Shown here one piece after another: positions 6,873 through 49,929 of a DNA stretch of 57,144 nt. Origin of the DNA: Microscillaceae bacterium (lineage in GTDB: Bacteria > Bacteroidota > Bacteroidia > Cytophagales > Microscillaceae); assembly GCA_025054775.1 (NCBI GenBank), contig JANWZA010000013.1, forward strand, positions 1-57,144. The letters run 5' to 3'. The position numbers were made by a program, and so were the translations under genes. The notes beneath the pieces were generated by a model. The model did not search any database and was not told the origin of the DNA. It saw nothing but the letters and a program-made list of their open reading frames with translations. Position 1 is the first letter of the stretch. Every line of letters begins with the position of its first letter.

Positions 6873-8267
6873 ATGGAATTTCGTATAGAACGCGATACAA
6901 TGGGCGAGGTGCAAGTACCTGCTCACGTATTTTGGGGTGCACAAACAGAGCGTAGCCGAAACAACTTCCGCATCGGAGAAGAGGCTTCCATGCCCATAGA
7001 GATTATCCATGCCTTTGCCTATCTCAAAAAAGCAGCAGCCTTAGCGAATTATGAACTTGGGGTATTGAGTCAAGAGAAAGCCCAACTCATAGCTCAAGTA
7101 TGTGATGAGATTTTGAACCACGAGCTAGATGATCAATTTCCTCTTGTCATTTGGCAAACAGGTTCAGGTACACAAAGTAATATGAATGTAAACGAGGTAA
7201 TTGCTTATAAGGCTCATGTAAATGCAGGAGGTAAACTTACTGACGAAAAAAAAATTATCCACCCTAATGATGACGTAAACAAATCACAATCTTCAAACGA
7301 TACTTTCCCCACAGCAATGCATATCGCTGCTTATAAGATGGTAGTAGAGGTTACTATACCTGGTTTGCAACTACTTCGCGATACGCTAGCCCAAAAAGCT
7401 TCTGATTTCAAGGATATTGTGAAAATAGGACGTACCCACTTTATGGATGCCACACCACTCACTCTAGGGCAAGAATTTTCGGGCTATGTGCAACAAATAG
7501 ATAATGGTATTCGAGCTTTGAAAAATGCTCTTGAAATGGTACGTGAATTAGCCCTCGGTGGTACGGCAGTAGGTACAGGATTGAATGCCCCCAAAGGCTA
7601 TGATGTGCTAGTAGCTAAAAAAATTGCCGAACTTACAGGCTATCCTTTCATTACCGCACCTAATAAATTTGAAGCCTTAGCCGCTCACGACGCAATGGTA
7701 GAACTTTCAGGAGCTTTGAAGCGTTGTGCTGTTTCGCTTATGAAAATTGCTAACGATATACGTATGCTTAGCTCAGGACCTCGTTGTGGTATTGGAGAAA
7801 TTATTATTCCTGACAATGAGCCAGGTTCGTCTATCATGCCAGGCAAAGTAAATCCAACGCAACCCGAAGCCCTTACGATGGTATGTTGTCAAGTAATTGG
7901 TAACGATGTAGCAATTACTGTAGGTGGTATGAATGGACATTTTGAGCTAAATGTATTTAAGCCACTTATCGCTGCTAACGTGTTACAGTCTGCTCGCTTG
8001 TTAGGTGATGCTTGCGTTTCATTCAATAATAAATGTGCCGTAGGAATAGAGCCCAACTATGAGGTAATACAAAAGCACTTGGAAAATTCGCTGATGTTGG
8101 TAACAGCCCTCAACCCACACATTGGCTATGAAAATGCAGCAAAAATTGCCAAAAAAGCTCACAAAGAAAATAAAACCCTTCGCGAAGCCGCTCTTGAATT
8201 AGGTTTACTTACTAACGAACAATTTGAAGCCTGGGTAGTACCTAAAAATATGGTAGGAAACTTGTAG
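6873..8267 (+). CDS. fumC: Fumarate hydratase class II
   Basis: 464 aa, full length for the iron-independent homotetrameric fumarase that interconverts fumarate and malate in the TCA cycle. It starts [25 protein letters not shown], typical of the family. The region [21 protein letters not shown] (about residues 184-204) carries the substrate-site His. The superfamily signature [15 protein letters not shown] sits near residue 318-332, and its first Ser is the catalytic base region. The SGAL stretch and the C-terminal small domain are present. A terminator lies upstream and a -7 box at 6818, so it probably starts its own transcript. The Na/Pi-type gene follows by 42 bp and may be co-transcribed. 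Confidence 0.97.
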
Positions 8268-8309
8268 AAAAATAAAAAACTTACTAGCTTATTTTCTGCT
8301 CTATTTCTT

Positions 8310-9254
8310 ATGAATACAGATATATTTCTGCTCATTTTGGCAGGTTTAGGGCTCTTCATATATGCTATTGCTGCTCTTTCTGAAAGTACACAATTAGTAG
8401 CGGGTGAGAACTTAGAACAATGGTTGAGAGTATGCACAAAAAATTTATTTTGGGGCATACTGACAGGTATACTAGTTACGGCAATTATTGGCTCGTCTTC
8501 TGCAGTTATCATTATTACGATTATACTAATCAACTCGCGTGTTTTCAACTTTCGGCAAGCTATTGGTGTGGTGCTTGGAGCAAATATCGGCACAACCATG
8601 AGTAGCCAAGTCATTGCATTTGATTTGGGTAAAATATCCCCTGTTTTTATTGCTATTGGGCTTATCATGCATATTGCTCTTGCTAACAAGTGGTGGAAAG
8701 ATATTGGAAAGGTAATTTTGTATTTTGGTATCCTATTTTTTGGATTACAAACTATGGAGCGAGCCGTAGAGCCTTTGCGAAATAGCCCTTGGTTTGTACA
8801 AACTTTATCCAACCTTGATAACCTATTAGCAGGAACTATGGCAGGAATGTTTACTACACTTATTATTCAATCCTCTTCGGCTACGGTAGGAATTGCCATT
8901 GTATTGGTTAAGAAAAGTTTGCTCTCGCTCAAAGCGGGTATTTCAGTCATGATGGGAGCCGAGTTAGGCACAGTGAGCGATACATTACTAGCTACTATCA
9001 ACGGTACACGGCAAGCATTAAAAACAGGAGTATTTCATTTCTTGTTTAACCTTATTTCTATTGTTGTTGGGTTGTTACTTTTCACTCCTTTCTATCATTT
9101 TGTAGAATGGGTGAGCAGAGATGCCACAGCGGAAAGGGCTTTAGCTAATGCCCATATGTGGTTTAACATTTTAGGAGTGGTGTTATTTGTGTGGTTTGTA
9201 CCACTTTTTGAACGATTACTTAATACAATTTTACCTGACAAAACAACTAATTAG
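8310..9254 (+). CDS. Na/Pi-cotransporter family membrane protein (PF02690 type), no PhoU domain
   Basis: 314 aa integral membrane protein with two inverted-repeat halves. The first has GSSSAVIII (about residue 59) with GANIGTT shortly after; the second has QSSSATVGI (about residue 187) with MMGAELGT. These QSSS/GANxGT repeats are the hallmark of NptA/SLC34-type sodium-phosphate symporters. The C terminus ends soon after the last helix, so the cytoplasmic PhoU-like domain found in many bacterial members is absent. Transport of phosphate is inferred from family only. It follows fumC by 42 bp and is followed by the THX gene with its own -7 box. A 217-codon open frame on the opposite strand here is a shadow. 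Confidence 0.88.
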   Translation: MNTDIFLLILAGLGLFIYAIAALSESTQLVAGENLEQWLRVCTKNLFWGILTGILVTAIIGSSSAVIIITIILINSRVFNFRQAIGVVLGANIGTTMSSQVIAFDLGKISPVFIAIGLIMHIALANKWWKDIGKVILYFGILFFGLQTMERAVEPLRNSPWFVQTLSNLDNLLAGTMAGMFTTLIIQSSSATVGIAIVLVKKSLLSLKAGISVMMGAELGTVSDTLLATINGTRQALKTGVFHFLFNLISIVVGLLLFTPFYHFVEWVSRDATAERALANAHMWFNILGVVLFVWFVPLFERLLNTILPDKTTN

Positions 9255-9273
9255 TCTTTTTTAGAAAAATTAC

Positions 9274-9281
9274 TATTTTTG
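9274..9281 (+). promoter_or_regulatory. Putative -7 box (TATTTTTG) of the THX gene
   Basis: TAnnTTTG match 52 bp upstream of the THX ATG. The tetramer at the expected -33 distance is TTAG (9251-9254), one base off TTTG. Confidence 0.5.
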
Positions 9282-9333
9282 CAACCTAATTTTGATTGAA
9301 TTGAATTGTAAATAAACCACACAAGCAAAAACT

Positions 9334-9459
9334 ATGGGAAAAGGAGATAGAAGAACTCGTAGAGGTAAAATCTGGCGTGGTACGTATGGCAATGCGCGCC
9401 CTAGAAAAAGACGCAAAGTAAAAAGCGTTCCTACTCAAAAAATTGATTCTGCTGAATAA
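9334..9459 (+). CDS. 30S ribosomal protein THX
   Basis: 41-residue, extremely basic protein starting [20 protein letters not shown] and continuing [10 protein letters not shown], ending in an acidic SAE tail. The [12 protein letters not shown]...GTYG pattern is that of THX, the small peptide first seen at the top of the Thermus 30S head and widespread in Bacteroidota. It probably stabilises the 30S head by filling a gap between rRNA helices. The ATG at 9334 is the only sensible start. A -7 box lies upstream and a long hairpin follows the stop, so it is probably monocistronic. Confidence 0.93.
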
Positions 9460-32143: not shown

Positions 32144-33388
32144 ATGAAACGAAAAGTAAAATACATTTTATTATTGTTAGCTCTTTTTTACCTTTTTGCT
32201 ACCTGCCGAACCGACAAAGGAATAATCAAAGTTGGTGTATTACACTCGCTTTCAGGCACGATGGCTATTAGCGAAAGAGCTGTAGCTAATGCCACACTTA
32301 TGGCAATAGACGAAATTAACCAAGCAGGAGGAATTTTAGGTAAAAAAATAGAAGCCATTTTAGTGGATGGCAAATCCGACTGGGGGCATTTTGCTCGCGA
32401 AGCAGAAAGGCTAATTACTCAAGAAAAAGTAAGTGTAATTTTTGGATGCTGGACTTCAGCAAGCAGGAAAACCGTAAAACCCATTTTTGAGAGCTATAAT
32501 CACTTGCTTTTCTACCCTGTCCAATACGAAGGTTTGGAAACCTCGCCAAATATTGTCTATACAGGGGCTGCACCTAACCAACAAGTTATCCCTGCTACTA
32601 AGTGGGCTTTCGATAATATCGGGAAACGCTTTTTTATCGTAGGTTCTGATTATGTTTACCCGCGTGTGGCTTCACAAATTATACAAGATATCATAAAGTC
32701 TCTTGGTGGTGAAGTAGTGGGCGATGAATACATCCTGCTAGGAAGCAAAGACGTGAAGCCTGTCATTGACAAAATTCTCAAAACCAAGCCCGATGTTATT
32801 ATGAATAATATCAATGGAGACTCCAACGTGGAATTTTTTAAGCAACTCCGTGCTGCAGGCATTACTAATAAGCAAATCCCCACTTTTTCGTTTAGCATAG
32901 CAGAAGACGAGCTACGAAGTCTAGACCGCACCCTCATGGCAGGTGATTATACTGCCTGGAACTACTTTCAAAGTATTGATACTGAAAGAAATAAAACCTT
33001 TGTAGAGAATTACAAAAAAAAATATGGAAAAGATGCGGTAACTGACGATCCGATTGAAGCAGGCTACATCTCAGTTTACCTTTGGAAAGCAGCCGTAGAA
33101 AAGGCAGGAACCGAAGCTACCAACGAAGTACGCAAAAACCTTGCAGACAGAAGTTTTATCGCACCCGAAGGATTAGTGTATATTGATGGTGAAACCCAAC
33201 ATACCTGGAAAACAGTACGAATAGGGAAATTTAGACTAGACGGACAGGTGGATATCATCTGGAGTTCAGACAAGCCCATACGACCTATTCCTTATCCCAC
33301 CTCCCGTAGTCAATCAGAATGGAATTTATTTTTAGCCCAACTTTTTGACGGATGGGGAGGCAATTGGGCAAATCTAAGCAAAAAATAA
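32144..33388 (+). CDS. UrtA-like periplasmic substrate-binding lipoprotein, without transporter genes
   Basis: 414 aa. The N terminus (MKRKVKYILLLLALFYLFAT then Cys21) looks like a lipoprotein signal. The body is a type I periplasmic binding protein of the urea/short-chain amide group (UrtA/AmiC/FmdD): KVGVLHSLSGTMAISERAV, NLLFYPVQYEG-type strand, TGAAPNQQVIPATKW, TAWNYFQSID, and the C-terminal SDKPIRPIPYP near GWGGNW. UrtA normally feeds UrtBCDE, but no permease or ATPase follows. Instead, 42 bp downstream on the same strand is a Cache-SpoIIE receptor, so this protein may act as its ligand-sensing partner. Ligand identity (urea, amide, amino acid) is inferred only. Confidence 0.87.
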   Translation: MKRKVKYILLLLALFYLFATCRTDKGIIKVGVLHSLSGTMAISERAVANATLMAIDEINQAGGILGKKIEAILVDGKSDWGHFAREAERLITQEKVSVIFGCWTSASRKTVKPIFESYNHLLFYPVQYEGLETSPNIVYTGAAPNQQVIPATKWAFDNIGKRFFIVGSDYVYPRVASQIIQDIIKSLGGEVVGDEYILLGSKDVKPVIDKILKTKPDVIMNNINGDSNVEFFKQLRAAGITNKQIPTFSFSIAEDELRSLDRTLMAGDYTAWNYFQSIDTERNKTFVENYKKKYGKDAVTDDPIEAGYISVYLWKAAVEKAGTEATNEVRKNLADRSFIAPEGLVYIDGETQHTWKTVRIGKFRLDGQVDIIWSSDKPIRPIPYPTSRSQSEWNLFLAQLFDGWGGNWANLSKK

Positions 33389-33430
33389 TTCTCATCATTC
33401 ATTTGAAATACTGTAAAGCAAAATAAAATT

Positions 33431-36400
33431 ATGTTTAGTATTTGGGGCTATCTTCAAAAACGAATTTCTTTACAACTACTCTTTTGGTTTCTATTGATAG
33501 AATTCCCTGCTGAGTTTGCCTTAGTGTATGCCAGCTATTACCAAGCAAAATCTACCTTACAAGCTGAAATTATAGACAAGCTAAACAGTATAGCTGAAAG
33601 GCAAATTTTAGAAATTAATAATTACATCAAGCAAGAGGAAATAGACCTCACTATTCTTTCTAATACCAGCGATATTATCAATGCAGTAAAAGAATTAAAT
33701 GAAAGCTACGAAAAATACGGAAACGATGACAAACATGCTACTTTGATTGAGAACTATACCAAAGAATTACTAAGATACCAAAAAAATTTTGAATTTGAAC
33801 ACATTCTAGTGCTTAATCTCCAAGGAGAAGTTACTTTTTCAAACTCTATCTCTATTAATGTAGGCAAAAAAATTAGCCAGAGCAATTTTCCCGAACTTAC
33901 TAAATTGTATGAACGTGTTTTCACACTTTTGCAAGTAGAGTTTTCTGATTTTATTAGCTTGGACAACTTTGATAAGTTTGTTATCTTCGGAGGAGTACCC
34001 ATTCGTAATAGGGAAGGGCGTTTCCTAGGAGTGGTACTGGCAGAGATAAATAGTGAAACAATTGAAAAAGCCATCAATAATTACACAGGTTTAGGCAGAA
34101 CAGGCGAGAGCTTGCTTTTTTTTCAAAAAAATGAAACGGTTTACTTTGCTACCAACTCCCGATTCCAAAAAGCTACCCATGAGGCAGCTATTCCTTACAA
34201 TCCTCAAGAGATGCCCAAAGAGTTTTTTTTGGCCTTGCAAGGACAAAAAGGACAAATGATAGCTCATGATTACAAAGGTATTTCTTCGGTAATCAAATAT
34301 GCTTATGTTCCCTCGTTAAGAGCGGGCATTATTGTAAAGATAGCCACCGAGGAAGCATTCAAACCCATAGAAACATTACAAAGAGTATTATTTGTAATTG
34401 TCGTTCTCACTTTAGCAGTAGTCATATTTGTAGCTTTTAAGGTAGCGAGTACTTTCACAAAACCTATTCGCAGGTTATCCTATGTGGTACAAGCTATTGC
34501 CCAAGGTAACCTTGAAAAACGGTCTGATACCCAAGAGCAAAATGAAATAGGACAACTCGCACAAAGCATTAACCAAATGGCAGAGACCCTGCAAAAAAAT
34601 AAAGAAGAACTAGAGGCTTATAATCAAGAATTAGAGGAAAAAGTTGCCCAACGTACTGCAGAATTAGAAATAACACTTAAACAAGTACAAAAACAAAAAG
34701 AAGAATTGCTTGTCTCAGAAGAGGAGTTGAGGCAAACCGCCGAGGAAATGCAAGTAATCAACGAAGCCTTATCCCAAAAAGAAAAACGTTTCAGAAAAAT
34801 TATTGAAGATAATGTAATTGGCATGGCTATTTTAAGCAATGAAATGATAGTATTTGCTAATCAATCTTTTGTAAATACTTTAGAGTATCACCTTGAAGAA
34901 ATCTTTGGCAAAAGCCTAGAGGAAATGGTTACCCCTTTATATCGGCAAAGTTTCAAAAAGTTTTTGGCTAATTTTGAACAAGCCACAGAAACAGACAAGA
35001 ATGTTCCTAACCGCATGGAAGTAAAAATCTACACTAAAAAACGAAAAACCATTTGGGCAGATTTATCCTTAGTTCACGTCAATTTTGAAGGAGCAGACAG
35101 CGTACTAGTCAATTTAGTTGATATCACTGAAAAGAAAAATGCTGAAATCAAAATCAAAGAAAGTGAGCGAAAATTCAAAGCAATTTTTGAGAATATACAA
35201 GAGGGTTTCTTGCAGGTTTCAGAGTATGGGGAAATACTTATGGCAAATGACCAAGCCGCAAAAATACTCGGCTACCAAACCGCCGCAGACCTGAAGGGGA
35301 AAATTATTCAAGATGATATTTACCTCAACCCTGAAGATAGAGAGAAAATGCATCAAGCAATGAACAACAATAATGGAAAGGTAGATAACTATGAGGTATC
35401 TCTGAAAAAAGCAGATGGCACTCCTATCGTAGTAGAATTTGACAAACATTATGTAAAAGATGAAAATGGGCAACTTATTTTTATAGAAGGGCTGTTCAGA
35501 GATATTACCCAACGTAAAATGCAAGAACTTGCTCTCAAAGAAGCTAACGATAGGTTAATTGCCTCCCAAGAAGAACTACAACAAAATGCTGAAGAACTTG
35601 CTACCGTTAACGAAAATTTGAATAAAATCCTAGCCGAAGTCAAAGAAACTAATATTCAACTGGAAATTTCGCGGGAAATGCTCGCCAGACAAAAAGCAAA
35701 TATAGAACGCGACAATAAGATATTAGTACAATTAGCTCAAAACCAAGCTATACAAGCAGGCGATTGGCAAGAAGCCTTACAAATCATTACCCGAATTACT
35801 GCTAAACGACTCTATGCCGAGCGCGTAGGTATCTGGAATATTGAGAATGAATCTACCCTTCACCTAAATTGTATCTGTATGTATGACGCCGAAAACAAAG
35901 AGTACATCTCTCAACCTAAAATGTTTCAGTCTGCTTATCCTACATATTTTGAAAATATTTTAACAGGTAATGTTATCAATGCCATAGATGCTATACATCA
36001 CCCTCATACTCAGGAATTTGCCAAGAATTACTTTTTAGAAAACAATATCAAATCCACCTTAGATGTTCCCTTCTTTGGTAGAAACGGAGTAGCAGGCGTA
36101 CTTCGCATAGAAGGTAAATATACTTACCGAGACTGGGAAGCCGAAGATATTACCTTTGCCAAATCTATTGCAGATATGATAACTATTGCTTATAAGTCTT
36201 ACCAAAGAAAATTAGCTGAAGACCAATTAGCCAAGCAAAATGCTATTATTCAGAAAAAAAATGACGATATTATTGATAGTATTAACTATGCCAGCCGTAT
36301 CCAAAATGCTATCCTTCCTACTGATACCTTTATTGAGAGCCTATTTGAGGAGTATTTTGTGCTATTCAAACCAAGAGATATAGTTTCAGGTGATTTCTAC

Positions 36401-37021
36401 TGGTTTAGTAAGGTAGAAAATAAAATCATCGCTACTGCCGTAGATTGCACAGGGCACGGAGTACCTGGTGCTTTTATGAGTATGATTGGTACCCAAATGC
36501 TTAATGAAATCGTAAATCGTAGAAAAGTAATAAAACCACATGTGATTTTAACAGAGTTACACAAAAGCATAAGGAGAGCCTTAAAACAAGATGATATGTA
36601 TAACCGTGATGGCATGGATATGGCTATCATAGCCATTGACAAAGAAACCCAAACTATGGAATTTGCAGGTGCTAAAAATCCAATAGTTTACATTCAAAAT
36701 AAGCAGCTATTCTATATAAAAGGAACTAAATTCCCCATCGGTGGGGAACAGCGCGAAGAAGAAAGACTTTATGAACTTCATACCATAGATATCTCTCAGC
36801 CTACCTCTGTTTACCTCTTTACTGATGGCTACCAAGACCAGTTCGGTGGAAAAGAAGTGAAAAAATTTATGATTGCCAATCTACGAAATTTATTTTTAGA
36901 AATTCACGAAGAGCCAATGATTATCCAAAGAGAGATACTAAACAATACGATTGAACAATGGAAAGAAGATGGTAAGCAAAACCAAGTTGATGATATCTTG
37001 ATAATTGGACTTAGGGTCTAA
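33431..37021 (+). CDS. Cache-HAMP-PAS-PAS-GAF receptor with SpoIIE-type PP2C phosphatase output
   Basis: 1196 aa. TM1 (about 12-33), periplasmic dCache-like sensor (about 36-315; FGGVPIRNREGRFLGVVLAE typical), TM2 (about 318-338), HAMP (340-395), coiled coil, PAS (about 454-570), PAS (about 580-695), coiled coil, GAF (about 760-925), then a SpoIIE/PP2C domain (about 955-1196). Phosphatase metal motifs are intact: SGDFYWFSK, DCTGHGVPGAFMSM, NRDGMDMA and FTDGYQDQFGG. Such enzymes dephosphorylate anti-anti-sigma-like or other phosphoproteins. No anti-sigma factor lies nearby. It lies 42 bp after the orphan UrtA-like protein. The phosphatase domain closely resembles the one at 47782. Confidence 0.9.
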   Translation: MFSIWGYLQKRISLQLLFWFLLIEFPAEFALVYASYYQAKSTLQAEIIDKLNSIAERQILEINNYIKQEEIDLTILSNTSDIINAVKELNESYEKYGNDDKHATLIENYTKELLRYQKNFEFEHILVLNLQGEVTFSNSISINVGKKISQSNFPELTKLYERVFTLLQVEFSDFISLDNFDKFVIFGGVPIRNREGRFLGVVLAEINSETIEKAINNYTGLGRTGESLLFFQKNETVYFATNSRFQKATHEAAIPYNPQEMPKEFFLALQGQKGQMIAHDYKGISSVIKYAYVPSLRAGIIVKIATEEAFKPIETLQRVLFVIVVLTLAVVIFVAFKVASTFTKPIRRLSYVVQAIAQGNLEKRSDTQEQNEIGQLAQSINQMAETLQKNKEELEAYNQELEEKVAQRTAELEITLKQVQKQKEELLVSEEELRQTAEEMQVINEALSQKEKRFRKIIEDNVIGMAILSNEMIVFANQSFVNTLEYHLEEIFGKSLEEMVTPLYRQSFKKFLANFEQATETDKNVPNRMEVKIYTKKRKTIWADLSLVHVNFEGADSVLVNLVDITEKKNAEIKIKESERKFKAIFENIQEGFLQVSEYGEILMANDQAAKILGYQTAADLKGKIIQDDIYLNPEDREKMHQAMNNNNGKVDNYEVSLKKADGTPIVVEFDKHYVKDENGQLIFIEGLFRDITQRKMQELALKEANDRLIASQEELQQNAEELATVNENLNKILAEVKETNIQLEISREMLARQKANIERDNKILVQLAQNQAIQAGDWQEALQIITRITAKRLYAERVGIWNIENESTLHLNCICMYDAENKEYISQPKMFQSAYPTYFENILTGNVINAIDAIHHPHTQEFAKNYFLENNIKSTLDVPFFGRNGVAGVLRIEGKYTYRDWEAEDITFAKSIADMITIAYKSYQRKLAEDQLAKQNAIIQKKNDDIIDSINYASRIQNAILPTDTFIESLFEEYFVLFKPRDIVSGDFYWFSKVENKIIATAVDCTGHGVPGAFMSMIGTQMLNEIVNRRKVIKPHVILTELHKSIRRALKQDDMYNRDGMDMAIIAIDKETQTMEFAGAKNPIVYIQNKQLFYIKGTKFPIGGEQREEERLYELHTIDISQPTSVYLFTDGYQDQFGGKEVKKFMIANLRNLFLEIHEEPMIIQREILNNTIEQWKEDGKQNQVDDILIIGLRV

Positions 37022-47781: not shown

Positions 47782-49929
47782 ATGCTAGACTTTTGTGCAT
47801 TTAAGCAAATACAAAATGATATATTTTTTAAGCTGATTGTATGTATTTTCTACATCATAAGTAGCTTACAGTTAATTGTTGCCCAAGCCGATGAGACTGC
47901 GGCACTCCGTATGATTATAGAACGTAACACCCAAGATGCCACTCACGTGAATGCTTTGGTTAGGTTAGCCCAAATCTATTACCCTAACAACTCCAAAGAA
48001 GCCGAAAAATTAGCCGATAAAGCATTAGAAATTGCCATACGCATCAATTATGATGAAGGCCTAGCAAATGCACTTACCATTTTAGGAGATATAGATGCTT
48101 ACCACCACAACAGCCCCGAACGCGCCCTTGAGCACCATGAGCGAGCCTACCAGGTCTATAAAAAACTATATCAAGAAGGAAAATTAGATAAATGGAAAAT
48201 TTACCAATTTCTAAAAGAACATGCGATACCAGCTTATAGAGTGATATATGCTAAAAATCATAACAAAAAACGTTACCAAAAATTGTTAATCAGATACCAA
48301 CAACTTAATACCGAGTATGTAGACTACCTTGCCACTCTAGCCTCTGAAACTCGCTCCGTTTTAGATAAAACAGAATCTGAATTAAAAGATAAAGAGAAGA
48401 TTTTGGCTGACAAGGAAGAGATTATCCAAAGTAAAGATGATGAAATCCGGCGAAGAGAACGTGAAATTCAAGAACGAGAGAAAGAAATTAAAGCCAAAGA
48501 ACGCGAACTACGCAAAAGCCGAGCCGCATTGAGCGAGAAGAGTACCTCAGAAGAACTTTTACAACAAATCAACGAAGAACTTTTGACCAACCTCGGTATG
48601 AGTGACAGCGCTAAACGCGCACTTAATGATAAAATTCTAGCACAAGAATACATTTTAGAAAAAAGTAAAAGAAAAATCGCCGAGCAGAAACTTAAACTAG
48701 AACACGAGCAACAAGCAAGGGAACGTAGAAATATCCTCATTGGGGTAATTATTTTTGTACTTGTAGCTGTGTTGGTAGTAGTAATTATCATTTACAGAAG
48801 CTACCAAAAGCAAAAAAAGGCTTATGCTCTAGTCAAAAAGCAAAAAGAACGACTAGAGGAGCAACAACGTATCTTAAAAGCACAAAAAGAAGAGTTAGAA
48901 CAAAAAAATCAAGAAATTTTGCAAAAATCTATTGAATTAGTACAAAGAAATGAGGAGATTATGCGACAAGCAATTGAAATACAAGAGCAAAAAGAAGAAT
49001 TAGAACGGCAGAACGCCCAAATTTCTGAGCAATATGTAGAAATAGAGCAAATCAATGTAGAAATTCTAGCCCAACGCGATGCCTTAGAGCAAGCTAATAG
49101 AAAGTTAGAAACGTTGAACCGCCAACTACAAGAAGCTAACAACGATGTAAAGGCAAGCATTACCTATGCCCAACGTATTCAGAACGCCCTTTTACCACAA
49201 ATAGAAGAAATAAAATCTATTCTGCCTGAATTTTTTATTCTATTTCAGCCACGTGATATCGTGTCAGGAGATTTTTATTGGATACACAAAAAAGAGAATG
49301 CAATTTTTATTGCTGCCATAGATTGTACAGGACACGGTGTACCAGGTGCCTTTATGAGCATGTTAGCAGACGCCTTGCTCACGCAAATTATTATTGATAA
49401 GCATATCCACTCTCCTGAGCAGGTCCTTGGTGCTATGCATGAAGGGGTGCGCCAATTGCTTCGGCAAGCAGAAACAGGCAACCGTGATGGCATGGACGCC
49501 GCACTCGTAGTTTGGTATAGAGAACAACATAGAATAGAATTTGCAGGAGCTAAGAATCCACTTTTTTTAGTTAAAACCACACAAACTCCACAAGGAAATA
49601 TCCAGGAGTTGGTAGAAATTAAGGGAGATATTTCTCCTATCGGAGGGCAACAAAAAGAAAAAAAACCTACAAGATTCCAAAAACATGTCATTGACACTCA
49701 CCCCTATCACACTTTTTACATATTTTCTGACGGCTACCAAGATCAATTTGGTGGTGAGAAAGGACGCAAATTTATGGTAGGTAACTTTAAGAAATTAATC
49801 ACAGAAATCGCTCCTAAAAAAATGAATGTGCAGAAAGCTATGCTTATTCAACGCCACGAGGAGTGGAAAGGGGATCTTGGACAAGTAGATGATATTCTTA
49901 TCATTGGCGTACGAATTGGAAAAGTATAA
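47782..49929 (+). CDS. TPR - transmembrane - SpoIIE-type PP2C phosphatase
   Basis: 715 aa. N-terminal signal/anchor (about 16-34, ending VAQADETA), a TPR-like helical domain (about 45-150; LAQIYYPNNSKEAEKLADKA), a coiled coil rich in charged residues (about 185-310), one membrane helix (about 320-341; IGVIIFVLVAVLVVVIIIY), a second coiled coil (about 345-470), then SpoIIE phosphatase (about 465-715) with SGDFYWIHK, DCTGHGVPGAFMSM, NRDGMDAAL and FSDGYQDQFGG. Metal sites are intact. The periplasmic TPR part presumably senses, the coiled coils relay. The catalytic domain and its coiled-coil approach closely match the phosphatase at 33431. Confidence 0.9.
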   Translation: MLDFCAFKQIQNDIFFKLIVCIFYIISSLQLIVAQADETAALRMIIERNTQDATHVNALVRLAQIYYPNNSKEAEKLADKALEIAIRINYDEGLANALTILGDIDAYHHNSPERALEHHERAYQVYKKLYQEGKLDKWKIYQFLKEHAIPAYRVIYAKNHNKKRYQKLLIRYQQLNTEYVDYLATLASETRSVLDKTESELKDKEKILADKEEIIQSKDDEIRRREREIQEREKEIKAKERELRKSRAALSEKSTSEELLQQINEELLTNLGMSDSAKRALNDKILAQEYILEKSKRKIAEQKLKLEHEQQARERRNILIGVIIFVLVAVLVVVIIIYRSYQKQKKAYALVKKQKERLEEQQRILKAQKEELEQKNQEILQKSIELVQRNEEIMRQAIEIQEQKEELERQNAQISEQYVEIEQINVEILAQRDALEQANRKLETLNRQLQEANNDVKASITYAQRIQNALLPQIEEIKSILPEFFILFQPRDIVSGDFYWIHKKENAIFIAAIDCTGHGVPGAFMSMLADALLTQIIIDKHIHSPEQVLGAMHEGVRQLLRQAETGNRDGMDAALVVWYREQHRIEFAGAKNPLFLVKTTQTPQGNIQELVEIKGDISPIGGQQKEKKPTRFQKHVIDTHPYHTFYIFSDGYQDQFGGEKGRKFMVGNFKKLITEIAPKKMNVQKAMLIQRHEEWKGDLGQVDDILIIGVRIGKV

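What the first reader, a model, noticed from the sequence alone, without database searches (positions are those of the whole stretch)
32144..37021. Orphan UrtA-like binding lipoprotein paired with a Cache/SpoIIE phosphatase receptor
A substrate-binding protein of the urea/amide type is followed 42 bp later by a receptor with periplasmic Cache, HAMP, two PAS, GAF and a SpoIIE phosphatase, and no permease or ATPase genes are present. The simplest reading is that the binding protein has been recruited as a ligand-presenting subunit for a phosphatase-based signalling pathway, not for transport. Binding protein-receptor pairs are known for histidine kinases and chemoreceptors; with SpoIIE-type output I am not aware of a described case.
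Basis: partly seen in the sequence, partly recalled or inferred. Interest (0 to 1): 0.6.

Follow-up and report, generated by a model that had tools for sequence, protein, structure and literature searches.

The report
Urea-type binding protein paired with receptor
In some Cytophagales bacteria and a few distant relatives, a protein of the kind that normally feeds urea to a transporter has no transporter and instead travels with a membrane receptor, which suggests that these cells sense urea, or a small molecule like it, rather than take it up as food.

Summary
Confirmed, and broader than stated. The binding protein (SBP, 32144-33388) has all eight key urea residues of UrtA, but its genome has no PF02653 permease, UrtB or urease. 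The next gene (33431-37021) is a Cache-HAMP-PAS-PAS-GAF-SpoIIE receptor. SBPs of this kind form one clade (19 sequences, support 100/100). In 16, the next same-strand gene is a receptor with a related sensor half; in the other 3, a SpoIIE receptor with such a sensor lies elsewhere in the genome. In 390 genomes of the order, both occur in 12, the receptor alone in 1 (at a contig end), an SBP of this kind alone in 0. All 19 carry a C-terminal tail, predicted helical in the window protein, that none of 61 other proteins compared has: a candidate docking element. Of 17 genomes with the receptor, 0 have urease or UrtB above cut-off; 4 of 4 urt-operon genomes tested have both. SpoIIE is one output among several (7 of 16 linked receptors; the rest are histidine kinases). 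Best reading: a LuxP/LuxQ-like, SBP-dependent receptor for urea or a small amide, with phosphatase output in this order. Contact, ligand and target are inferred.

The parts
32144..33388 (+). UrtA-like solute-binding protein, 414 aa, probable lipoprotein
   Evidence: model mean pLDDT 87.6; best PDB matches are urea-binding proteins 8tg1, 8hic, 7s6e, 7s6f
32144..32206 (+). signal sequence ending in Cys21 (probable lipid anchor)
   Evidence: sequence and hydropathy; read by eye, no signal-peptide predictor was available
32450..32896 (+). stretch that holds the urea pocket residues W103 S105 Y124 Q127 E129 Y170 (Y172) N224 S251
   Evidence: residues from PMC10392092
33296..33370 (+). clade-specific C-terminal tail, SBP residues 385-409, helix predicted at 390-403; candidate receptor-docking element
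   Evidence: 19 of 80 proteins compared, exactly the receptor clade; helix, block pLDDT 94 and 92 for SBP residues 392-411
33431..37021 (+). dCache-HAMP-PAS-PAS-GAF-SpoIIE receptor, 1196 aa
33464..33535 (+). transmembrane helix 1 (residues about 12-35)
   Evidence: hydropathy
33536..34363 (+). periplasmic dCache domain (residues about 36-311), proposed docking platform for the SBP
   Evidence: AlphaFold2 model of residues 30-315, mean pLDDT 90.2; PDB matches are mostly tandem Cache/PDC sensor domains
34364..34441 (+). transmembrane helix 2 (residues about 312-337)
   Evidence: hydropathy
34442..34594 (+). HAMP domain (residues 338-388)
34793..35146 (+). first PAS domain (residues about 455-572, borders estimated)
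   Evidence: two PAS stretches are counted; the borders of this one are my estimate
35171..35536 (+). second PAS domain (residues about 581-702)
35762..36190 (+). GAF domain (residues 778-920)
36389..37018 (+). SpoIIE/PP2C phosphatase domain; motifs GDFYWF 987, DCTGHG 1005, TDGYQDQ 1131, DDILII 1187
   Evidence: the catalytic role of these motifs is recalled

Best explanation
The two genes encode an SBP-dependent receptor. Shown by sequence: a binding protein with the complete UrtA urea pocket, no transporter of its kind in the genome, and co-inheritance with one family of dCache-type receptors. Inferred: urea, or a very similar small amide, closes the SBP; the closed SBP, tethered to the membrane and carrying a clade-specific C-terminal helix, docks on the periplasmic dCache domain; the signal passes through the membrane and HAMP to the PAS-PAS-GAF relay and changes the activity of the SpoIIE phosphatase. 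More weakly inferred: the phosphatase acts on a SiaC-type phosphoprotein, since a SiaB-family kinase and a SiaC protein are encoded beside a second dCache-SpoIIE receptor of the same genome. The sensor pair looks older than this output: in Planctomycetota, Acidobacteriota and other orders of Bacteroidota it is joined to histidine kinases.
For: Linkage: 16 of 19 clade members are followed, same strand, by a receptor whose N-terminal half matches the window receptor (59 to 299 bits for the 15 others), with gaps from short overlaps to +245 bp depending on the start codon. Co-occurrence: of 390 genomes of the order, 12 have both, 1 the receptor only (match starts at base 71 of a 3,764-bp contig), 0 an SBP of this kind only, 377 neither (Fisher 6e-22, not corrected for relatedness). 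It holds where linkage is lost: in genus g9 (G010-G012) SBP and SpoIIE receptor lie at separate places. No transport: UrtB over cut-off in 0 of 17 genomes with the receptor and 4 of 4 urt-operon genomes tested; urease alpha 0 of 17 and 4 of 4. Ligand: 8 of 8 key urea residues. Tail: 19 of 19 in the clade, 0 of 61 other proteins. Clade support 100/100. SBP and sensor distances correlate over 16 pairs, r = 0.72, 0 of 9,999 permutations as high. SiaB and SiaC genes in the genome.
Against: No complex was modelled and no binding measured. Pfam dCache_1 passes its curated cut-off in only 8 of 16 linked receptors, is below it in 7 and absent in 1 (L127). For L068 and L130-L132 the sensor match is modest (59-91 bits, residues 1-400, HAMP included). 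No urea-degrading route was found in the 17 genomes with the receptor, so a use for urea is not evident and the ligand may be a relative of it. dCache domains often bind small ligands themselves. Two of the 17 genomes have permease matches below the UrtB cut-off of 250 bits (G411 134 and 54, G522 21.5). The Fisher value and the distance correlation are inflated by shared ancestry. For some clade members little flanking DNA was seen (about 2.8-3.5 kb downstream in L122, L012, L011). The link to SiaC rests on the gene context of another receptor.
Confidence: 0.7

Rival explanations
1. The SBP is a relict UrtA that still feeds some other ABC transporter, or scavenges urea, and sits beside the receptor because both belong to one nitrogen response.
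For: It scores over the UrtA model cut-off; the urea pocket is intact; G411 has a permease pair below the UrtB cut-off.
Against: The window's genome has no PF02653 match, no urease and no urea carboxylase over cut-off; no permease match lies near any of the 19 clade members in the DNA seen; an SBP of this kind was not found without the receptor in 390 genomes.
Confidence: 0.08
2. The dCache domain senses its own small ligand; the SBP is a co-expressed modulator or second input, not the obligatory ligand presenter.
For: PDB matches of the sensor model include dCache domains with directly bound amino acids, carboxylates and other ligands.
Against: Co-occurrence also when unlinked and the clade-specific tail suggest that the SBP is part of the sensor.
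Confidence: 0.15
3. Chance adjacency or operon drift in one lineage.
For: 29 SpoIIE matches in this genome.
Against: Same order and strand in 16 of 19 clade members across Bacteroidota, Planctomycetota and Acidobacteriota.
Confidence: 0.02

Closest known systems
LuxP/LuxQ (Vibrio), SBP with double-PDC histidine kinase
   Same: LuxQ does not bind AI-2 itself; it reads it through the periplasmic protein LuxP on a double-PDC sensor (PMC8534201, passages).
   Different: Ligand AI-2, not urea; histidine kinase output; LuxP is not of the UrtA family (recalled).
SBP-activated receptors in general
   Same: SBP gene next to receptor gene; PMC11113362 (introduction read) says this holds for 10 of 11 characterised SBP-kinase couples.
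   Different: That introduction names chemoreceptors, histidine kinases, protein kinases and diguanylate cyclases/phosphodiesterases as shown to be SBP-activated; it names no phosphatase among them.
UrtA of UrtABCDE urea transporters
   Same: Fold, 48-57% identity to solved urea-binding proteins, all eight key urea residues.
   Different: No UrtB or PF02653 permease, no urease, extra C-terminal tail, receptor partner.
AmiC (amidase operon regulator)
   Same: A relative of UrtA used for sensing instead of transport (role recalled; entry titles).
   Different: 30-31% identity; pocket differs (W to Y, Q to P, N to V, S to T at the urea positions); works with AmiR, not a membrane receptor (recalled; 1qo0 title).
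SiaA (dCache-HAMP-PP2C phosphatase; layout recalled)
   Same: C-terminal part matches NF038263 with 237.7 bits.
   Different: Cut-off is 700 bits; PAS-PAS-GAF inserted; SBP partner; no SiaB or SiaC gene seen beside it.
Cyanobacterial UrtA-SpoIIE fusions seen here (L054, L059, L060)
   Same: UrtA-type domain with SpoIIE output.
   Different: One polypeptide, no hydrophobic segment found, so apparently cytosolic; two pocket residues differ in L059 and L060.

Membership tests
UrtA, substrate-binding protein of a urea ABC transporter | sequence over the TIGR03407 cut-off | tested here: met
   518.5 bits against 492.75
UrtA, substrate-binding protein of a urea ABC transporter | urea-contact residues | tested here: met
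   8 of 8 key residues; the Phe192 position is Tyr, a position whose mutation had little effect on binding
UrtA, substrate-binding protein of a urea ABC transporter | UrtBCDE partners | tested here: not met
   no PF02653 and no UrtB match in the genome; UrtD and UrtE were not searched
SBP-dependent receptor of LuxP/LuxQ type | SBP gene next to receptor gene, conserved | tested here: met
   16 of 19 clade members
SBP-dependent receptor of LuxP/LuxQ type | periplasmic tandem PDC/dCache sensor | tested here: met
   window receptor over the dCache_1 cut-off, model matches dCache structures
SBP-dependent receptor of LuxP/LuxQ type | physical SBP-sensor complex that controls output | not testable with these tools
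   no complex prediction or binding assay available
SiaA biofilm phosphatase | NF038263 cut-off | tested here: not met
   237.7 bits of 700
SpoIIE/PP2C phosphatase domain | PF07228 over cut-off, PP2C-type motifs | tested here: met
   61.6 bits of 25; motifs located, their role recalled

The most novel reading that the evidence does not exclude
An undescribed class of bacterial urea receptors: UrtA-derived SBPs marked by a C-terminal docking helix, coupled to dCache receptors with exchangeable outputs (kinase or SpoIIE phosphatase), in organisms that do not degrade urea with urease, so that urea is read as a signal and not as food; cyanobacteria and some other bacteria evolved cytosolic one-piece versions.
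Probability: 0.45. Interest if true: 0.75.

Novelty: new variant of a known kind. Interest (0 to 1): 0.6.

Why it matters
It would extend SBP-mediated sensing to a SpoIIE phosphatase output and to the UrtA family. It would give orphan 'urea transporter' annotations a different meaning: the UrtA model names this protein as part of a transporter whose permeases the genome lacks. It provides a sequence mark (the tail) that separated sensing from transporting UrtA proteins in the set compared. Urea as an extracellular signal for bacteria without urease would be unexpected and can be tested directly.

Tried and rejected
Chance adjacency: rejected by the survey. A transport role with unlinked urtBCDE: rejected for this genome (UrtD and UrtE not searched). 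SpoIIE as the defining partner: rejected, 9 of 16 linked receptors are histidine kinases. An AmiC-like amide pocket: rejected, the pocket is of the urea type. LuxQ is not among the 50 entries listed; this is no evidence either way. The A1 sensor profile finds no PDB sequence relative at E 0.01. Promoter and terminator scans (27 promoter-like sites against 16.6 +/- 4.2 in shuffles; 6 terminator-like against 4.1 +/- 2.2) and inverted repeats (two A/T-rich pairs upstream, none in the gap) gave nothing I could use. A search of Planctomycetota genomes could not be run. A first sensor tree and distance test (r = 0.49) had one row (L118) in a wrong frame; one search repeats them with the row corrected and the outgroup row dropped (r = 0.72).

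Of 95 loci given to, 15 had no SBP ORF at its threshold. L069, L070 and L071 (under 150 bits) were left out of the residue, tail and tree sets; L063 (cut by the contig end) and L134 (distant) also out of the tree; the Paenibacillaceae/Bacillaceae urt rows L015-L057 were thinned to 8 at random for the tree, and fused proteins cut to 420 residues.
Full report
WHAT IS THERE. Two genes lie at 32144-33388 and 33431-37021 on the + strand with a 42-bp gap. The first encodes a 414-aa UrtA-type binding protein: Peripla_BP_5 549.5 bits, TIGR03407 UrtA 518.5 bits against a cut-off of 492.75, with an N-terminal hydrophobic segment ending in Cys21. The second is a 1196-aa receptor with two membrane helices and the domains dCache_1, HAMP, two PAS, GAF and SpoIIE. 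The window lies in contig C7 of a 3.01-Mb genome that is 99% complete.

NO TRANSPORTER. The genome has one PF13433 match, this protein, no PF02653 match (the same search rings in 12 of 14 control genomes) and no UrtB match (rings in 11 of 14 controls). It has no urease alpha match and no urea carboxylase over cut-off (matches there are partial and reach 568 bits at most against a cut-off of 1304, mostly over the first 445 positions, which I read as other biotin-dependent carboxylases). UrtC, UrtD and UrtE were not searched on their own.

CONSERVED PAIR. Relatives came from a scan of genome contigs (77 loci) and from whole genomes: family 8 of 15 genomes with an SBP match at E 1e-40, order 24 of 390, phylum 6 of 395, own genome included each time. 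One search was given 95 loci (77, 17 of the 20 fetched, and the window) and found an SBP ORF in 80. In 19 of these, no permease match lies nearby and the tree below puts them together: identities to the window SBP are about 50-75%. Identity alone does not separate the kinds, because some true UrtAs with permeases (L014 from Nitrospirota at 60%, Paenibacillus at 52-59%) are as close. Of the 19, 16 are followed on the same strand by a receptor whose N-terminal half matches the window receptor's: the window, L010, L011, L037, L118, L119, L120, L127, L128, L129, L130, L131 and L132 (Bacteroidota), L012 and L013 (Planctomycetota), L068 (Acidobacteriota). The other three (L122-L124, one genus) have no such gene next door. 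Pfam dCache_1 is over its cut-off of 45 bits in 8 of the 16 (window, L010, L011, L012, L013, L128, L129, L132), below it in 7 (L037, L068, L118, L119, L120, L130, L131) and not reported in L127, which nevertheless matches the window receptor's N-terminal half with 186 bits. Four Paenibacillus urt loci (L040, L044, L046, L053) also show a weak sensor match on a gene of the other strand (18-22 bits); they have permeases and belong to the urt set.

TREE. In a maximum-likelihood tree of 46 proteins the 16 receptor-linked and 3 unlinked SBPs form one group with 100/100 support. The urt-operon proteins lie outside it; two of them (L014, L133) are its nearest neighbours (92/92). Seven fused proteins form a further group (99/93).

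CO-OCCURRENCE. The sensor half of the receptor (residues 1-340) was searched in 20 genomes and in 390 genomes of the order (E 1e-20; at most five candidates per genome were scored). In the order, 12 genomes hold an SBP with 60-100% identity to the window's and all 12 hold the receptor. One further genome, G014, holds the receptor without an SBP; there the match begins at base 71 of a 3,764-bp contig (L141), so an SBP gene upstream would be cut off. The other 377 have no receptor at this threshold; they include 12 genomes whose SBP is 47-49% identical, of which I checked the operon in 3 (G191, G124, G295: permeases present). The Fisher value for 12/1/0/377 is 6e-22 but ignores relatedness; the 12 genomes fall into 9 genera, and within genus g8 one genome has both and one (82% complete) neither. 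In genus g9 (G010-G012) SBP and receptor lie at separate places, yet both are present; their receptors (L138-L140) end in SpoIIE.

UREASE AND URTB CONTRAST. In 17 genomes with the receptor (16 with the SBP as well, plus G014), urease alpha is found in 0 and UrtB over its cut-off in 0; in the 4 urt-operon genomes that I tested both are found in 4. Two of the 17 have matches below the UrtB cut-off (G411 134 and 54 bits, G522 21.5 bits).

LIGAND. The UrtA-urea structure of Prochlorococcus names nine residues near urea, of which eight matter for binding (PMC10392092; passages and section 7 read). One numbering offset places all nine letters correctly on the 8hic sequence, and the window SBP has W103, S105, Y124, Q127, E129, Y170, Y172 (for Phe192, whose mutation had little effect), N224 and S251. 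The pocket letters are the same, apart from F or Y at that one place, in all 19 receptor-clade rows (15 with F, 4 with Y). AmiC, four urt-type rows (L062, L065, L066, L067), L134 and four of the fused rows differ. The predicted structure (mean pLDDT 87.6) is closest to solved urea-binding proteins: 8tg1 (Z 54.1, 57% identity), 8hic, 7s6e, 7s6f. I therefore take urea as the most likely ligand, and a small amide as the alternative.

A TAIL THAT MARKS THE SENSING KIND. After residue 384 the receptor-clade SBPs carry a conserved tail, P-[YF]-P-x2-R-x4-W-x2-F-L-x2-[LM]-x3-W-x3-W. The pattern occurs in 19 of 80 proteins compared (77 SBPs or SBP-type domains and three solved structures), exactly the 16 linked and the 3 unlinked members. 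The pattern was read from these same sequences, so the count describes the set and is not an independent test. It is predicted as a helix (SBP residues 390-403) with block pLDDT 94 and 92 and lies at or beyond the end of the part matched by solved structures (most rows end by model residue 369, the closest at 375). I propose it as the docking element; this is inference. Its presence in the three unlinked SBPs fits the idea that they still serve their receptors.

RECEPTOR. The sensor model (mean pLDDT 90.2) matches tandem Cache/PDC sensor domains of kinases and chemoreceptors. Outputs of the 16 linked receptors: SpoIIE in 7 (window, L011, L037, L118, L119, L127, L128), histidine kinase in 3 (L010, L120, L129), hybrid histidine kinase in 6 (L012, L013, L068, L130, L131, L132). 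In the sensor tree the outputs need 3 changes, with several forks unresolved, and SpoIIE occurs in this set only within the window's order, so the sensor pair looks older than the phosphatase output. In L010 the kinase gene is followed, after a short receiver-like ORF (by eye), by a receiver-SpoIIE protein (8069-9436 in the same contig, L121), which would reach a similar output by another route. SBP and sensor distances correlate over 16 pairs (r = 0.72, 0 of 9,999 permutations); shared descent contributes to this.

DOWNSTREAM. The C-terminal part resembles SiaA (237.7 bits, cut-off 700), so it is not filed as SiaA. The same genome encodes another dCache-HAMP-GAF-PAS-PAS-SpoIIE receptor (dCache_1 39.2 bits, below cut-off) with a SiaB-family kinase and a SiaC protein behind it (L143). 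A SiaC-type switch is therefore my best guess for the target of the window's phosphatase; there is no direct evidence.

URTA DOMAINS IN OTHER SIGNALLING PROTEINS. In cyanobacteria UrtA-type domains are fused to SpoIIE (L054, L059, L060), to a histidine kinase (L061) or to a nucleotide cyclase (L064); hybrid-kinase fusions occur in a Nitrosomonas and a Syntrophobacteraceae MAG (L056, L058). None of these seven shows a hydrophobic segment in a simple scan, so they appear cytosolic. L054 and L056 keep all urea letters; L058, L059, L060, L061 and L064 differ at one or more. A UrtA-type sensor with SpoIIE output thus occurs in two layouts.

KNOWN OR NEW. The introduction of PMC11113362 (section read) names the receptor families shown to be activated by SBPs: chemoreceptors, histidine kinases, protein kinases and diguanylate cyclases/phosphodiesterases. 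LuxQ is the closest analogue, a double-PDC sensor that reads its ligand through LuxP (PMC8534201, passages). My searches for a described UrtA-type or other SBP with a SpoIIE receptor gave no paper that by title, abstract start or passages describes one (no papers; four papers in all, listings only except passages of PMC8547431). The library lacks most subscription journals, and the review on SBPs in signal transduction was not held. I rate it a new variant of a known kind.

CERTAINTY. Shown here: genes, domains, absence of permease, UrtB and urease matches, pocket, tail, conservation, co-occurrence. Inferred: SBP-dCache contact, urea as signal, direction of the effect on the phosphatase, SiaC as target.

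Noticed in passing
L054:1764-3749, L059:2992-5094, L060:7974-10103: Cyanobacterial proteins that fuse a UrtA-type domain directly to SpoIIE, with no hydrophobic segment in a hydropathy scan.
   Followed up: partly
L064:6232-9240, L061:3546-6443, L056:182-3268, L058:5566-10908: UrtA-type domains fused to a nucleotide cyclase or to (hybrid) histidine kinases, apparently cytosolic.
   Followed up: partly
L143:4463-9204 (own genome, contig C44): A second dCache-type SpoIIE receptor followed by a SiaB-family kinase and a SiaC protein.
   Followed up: partly
L010:5026-9436: Histidine kinase version of the receptor followed by a short receiver-like ORF (by eye) and a receiver-SpoIIE protein.
   Followed up: partly
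L076:4500-5753: Spirochaete MAG: a dCache receptor start, but the SBP before it is reduced to fragments with a frame change and missing parts; decay or assembly error.
   Followed up: partly
L071:4489-8423: Desulfobacterales: a distant SBP (26% identity) next to a dCache chemoreceptor with an MCP signalling domain.
   Followed up: no
PDB 5ere: One solved chain of Desulfohalobium matches both the sensor model (Z 17.5, rmsd 5.3) and the SBP model (Z 32.2, rmsd 2.5), with overlapping chain ranges; it may be a natural SBP-Cache fusion.
   Followed up: no
L142:5886-7307: G101 has a second, shorter receptor copy (473 aa) with the same sensor type and no SpoIIE match, without an SBP beside it.
   Followed up: no
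L138:3155-4366, L139:6877-8064, L140:7335-8546: In the genus with unlinked receptors, each receptor is followed by a protein of about 400 aa that looks like a lipoprotein by eye; the one from L138 had no NCBIfam match.
   Followed up: no
window 47782-49929: Another SpoIIE protein in the window, with a TPR match near its N-terminus.
   Followed up: no
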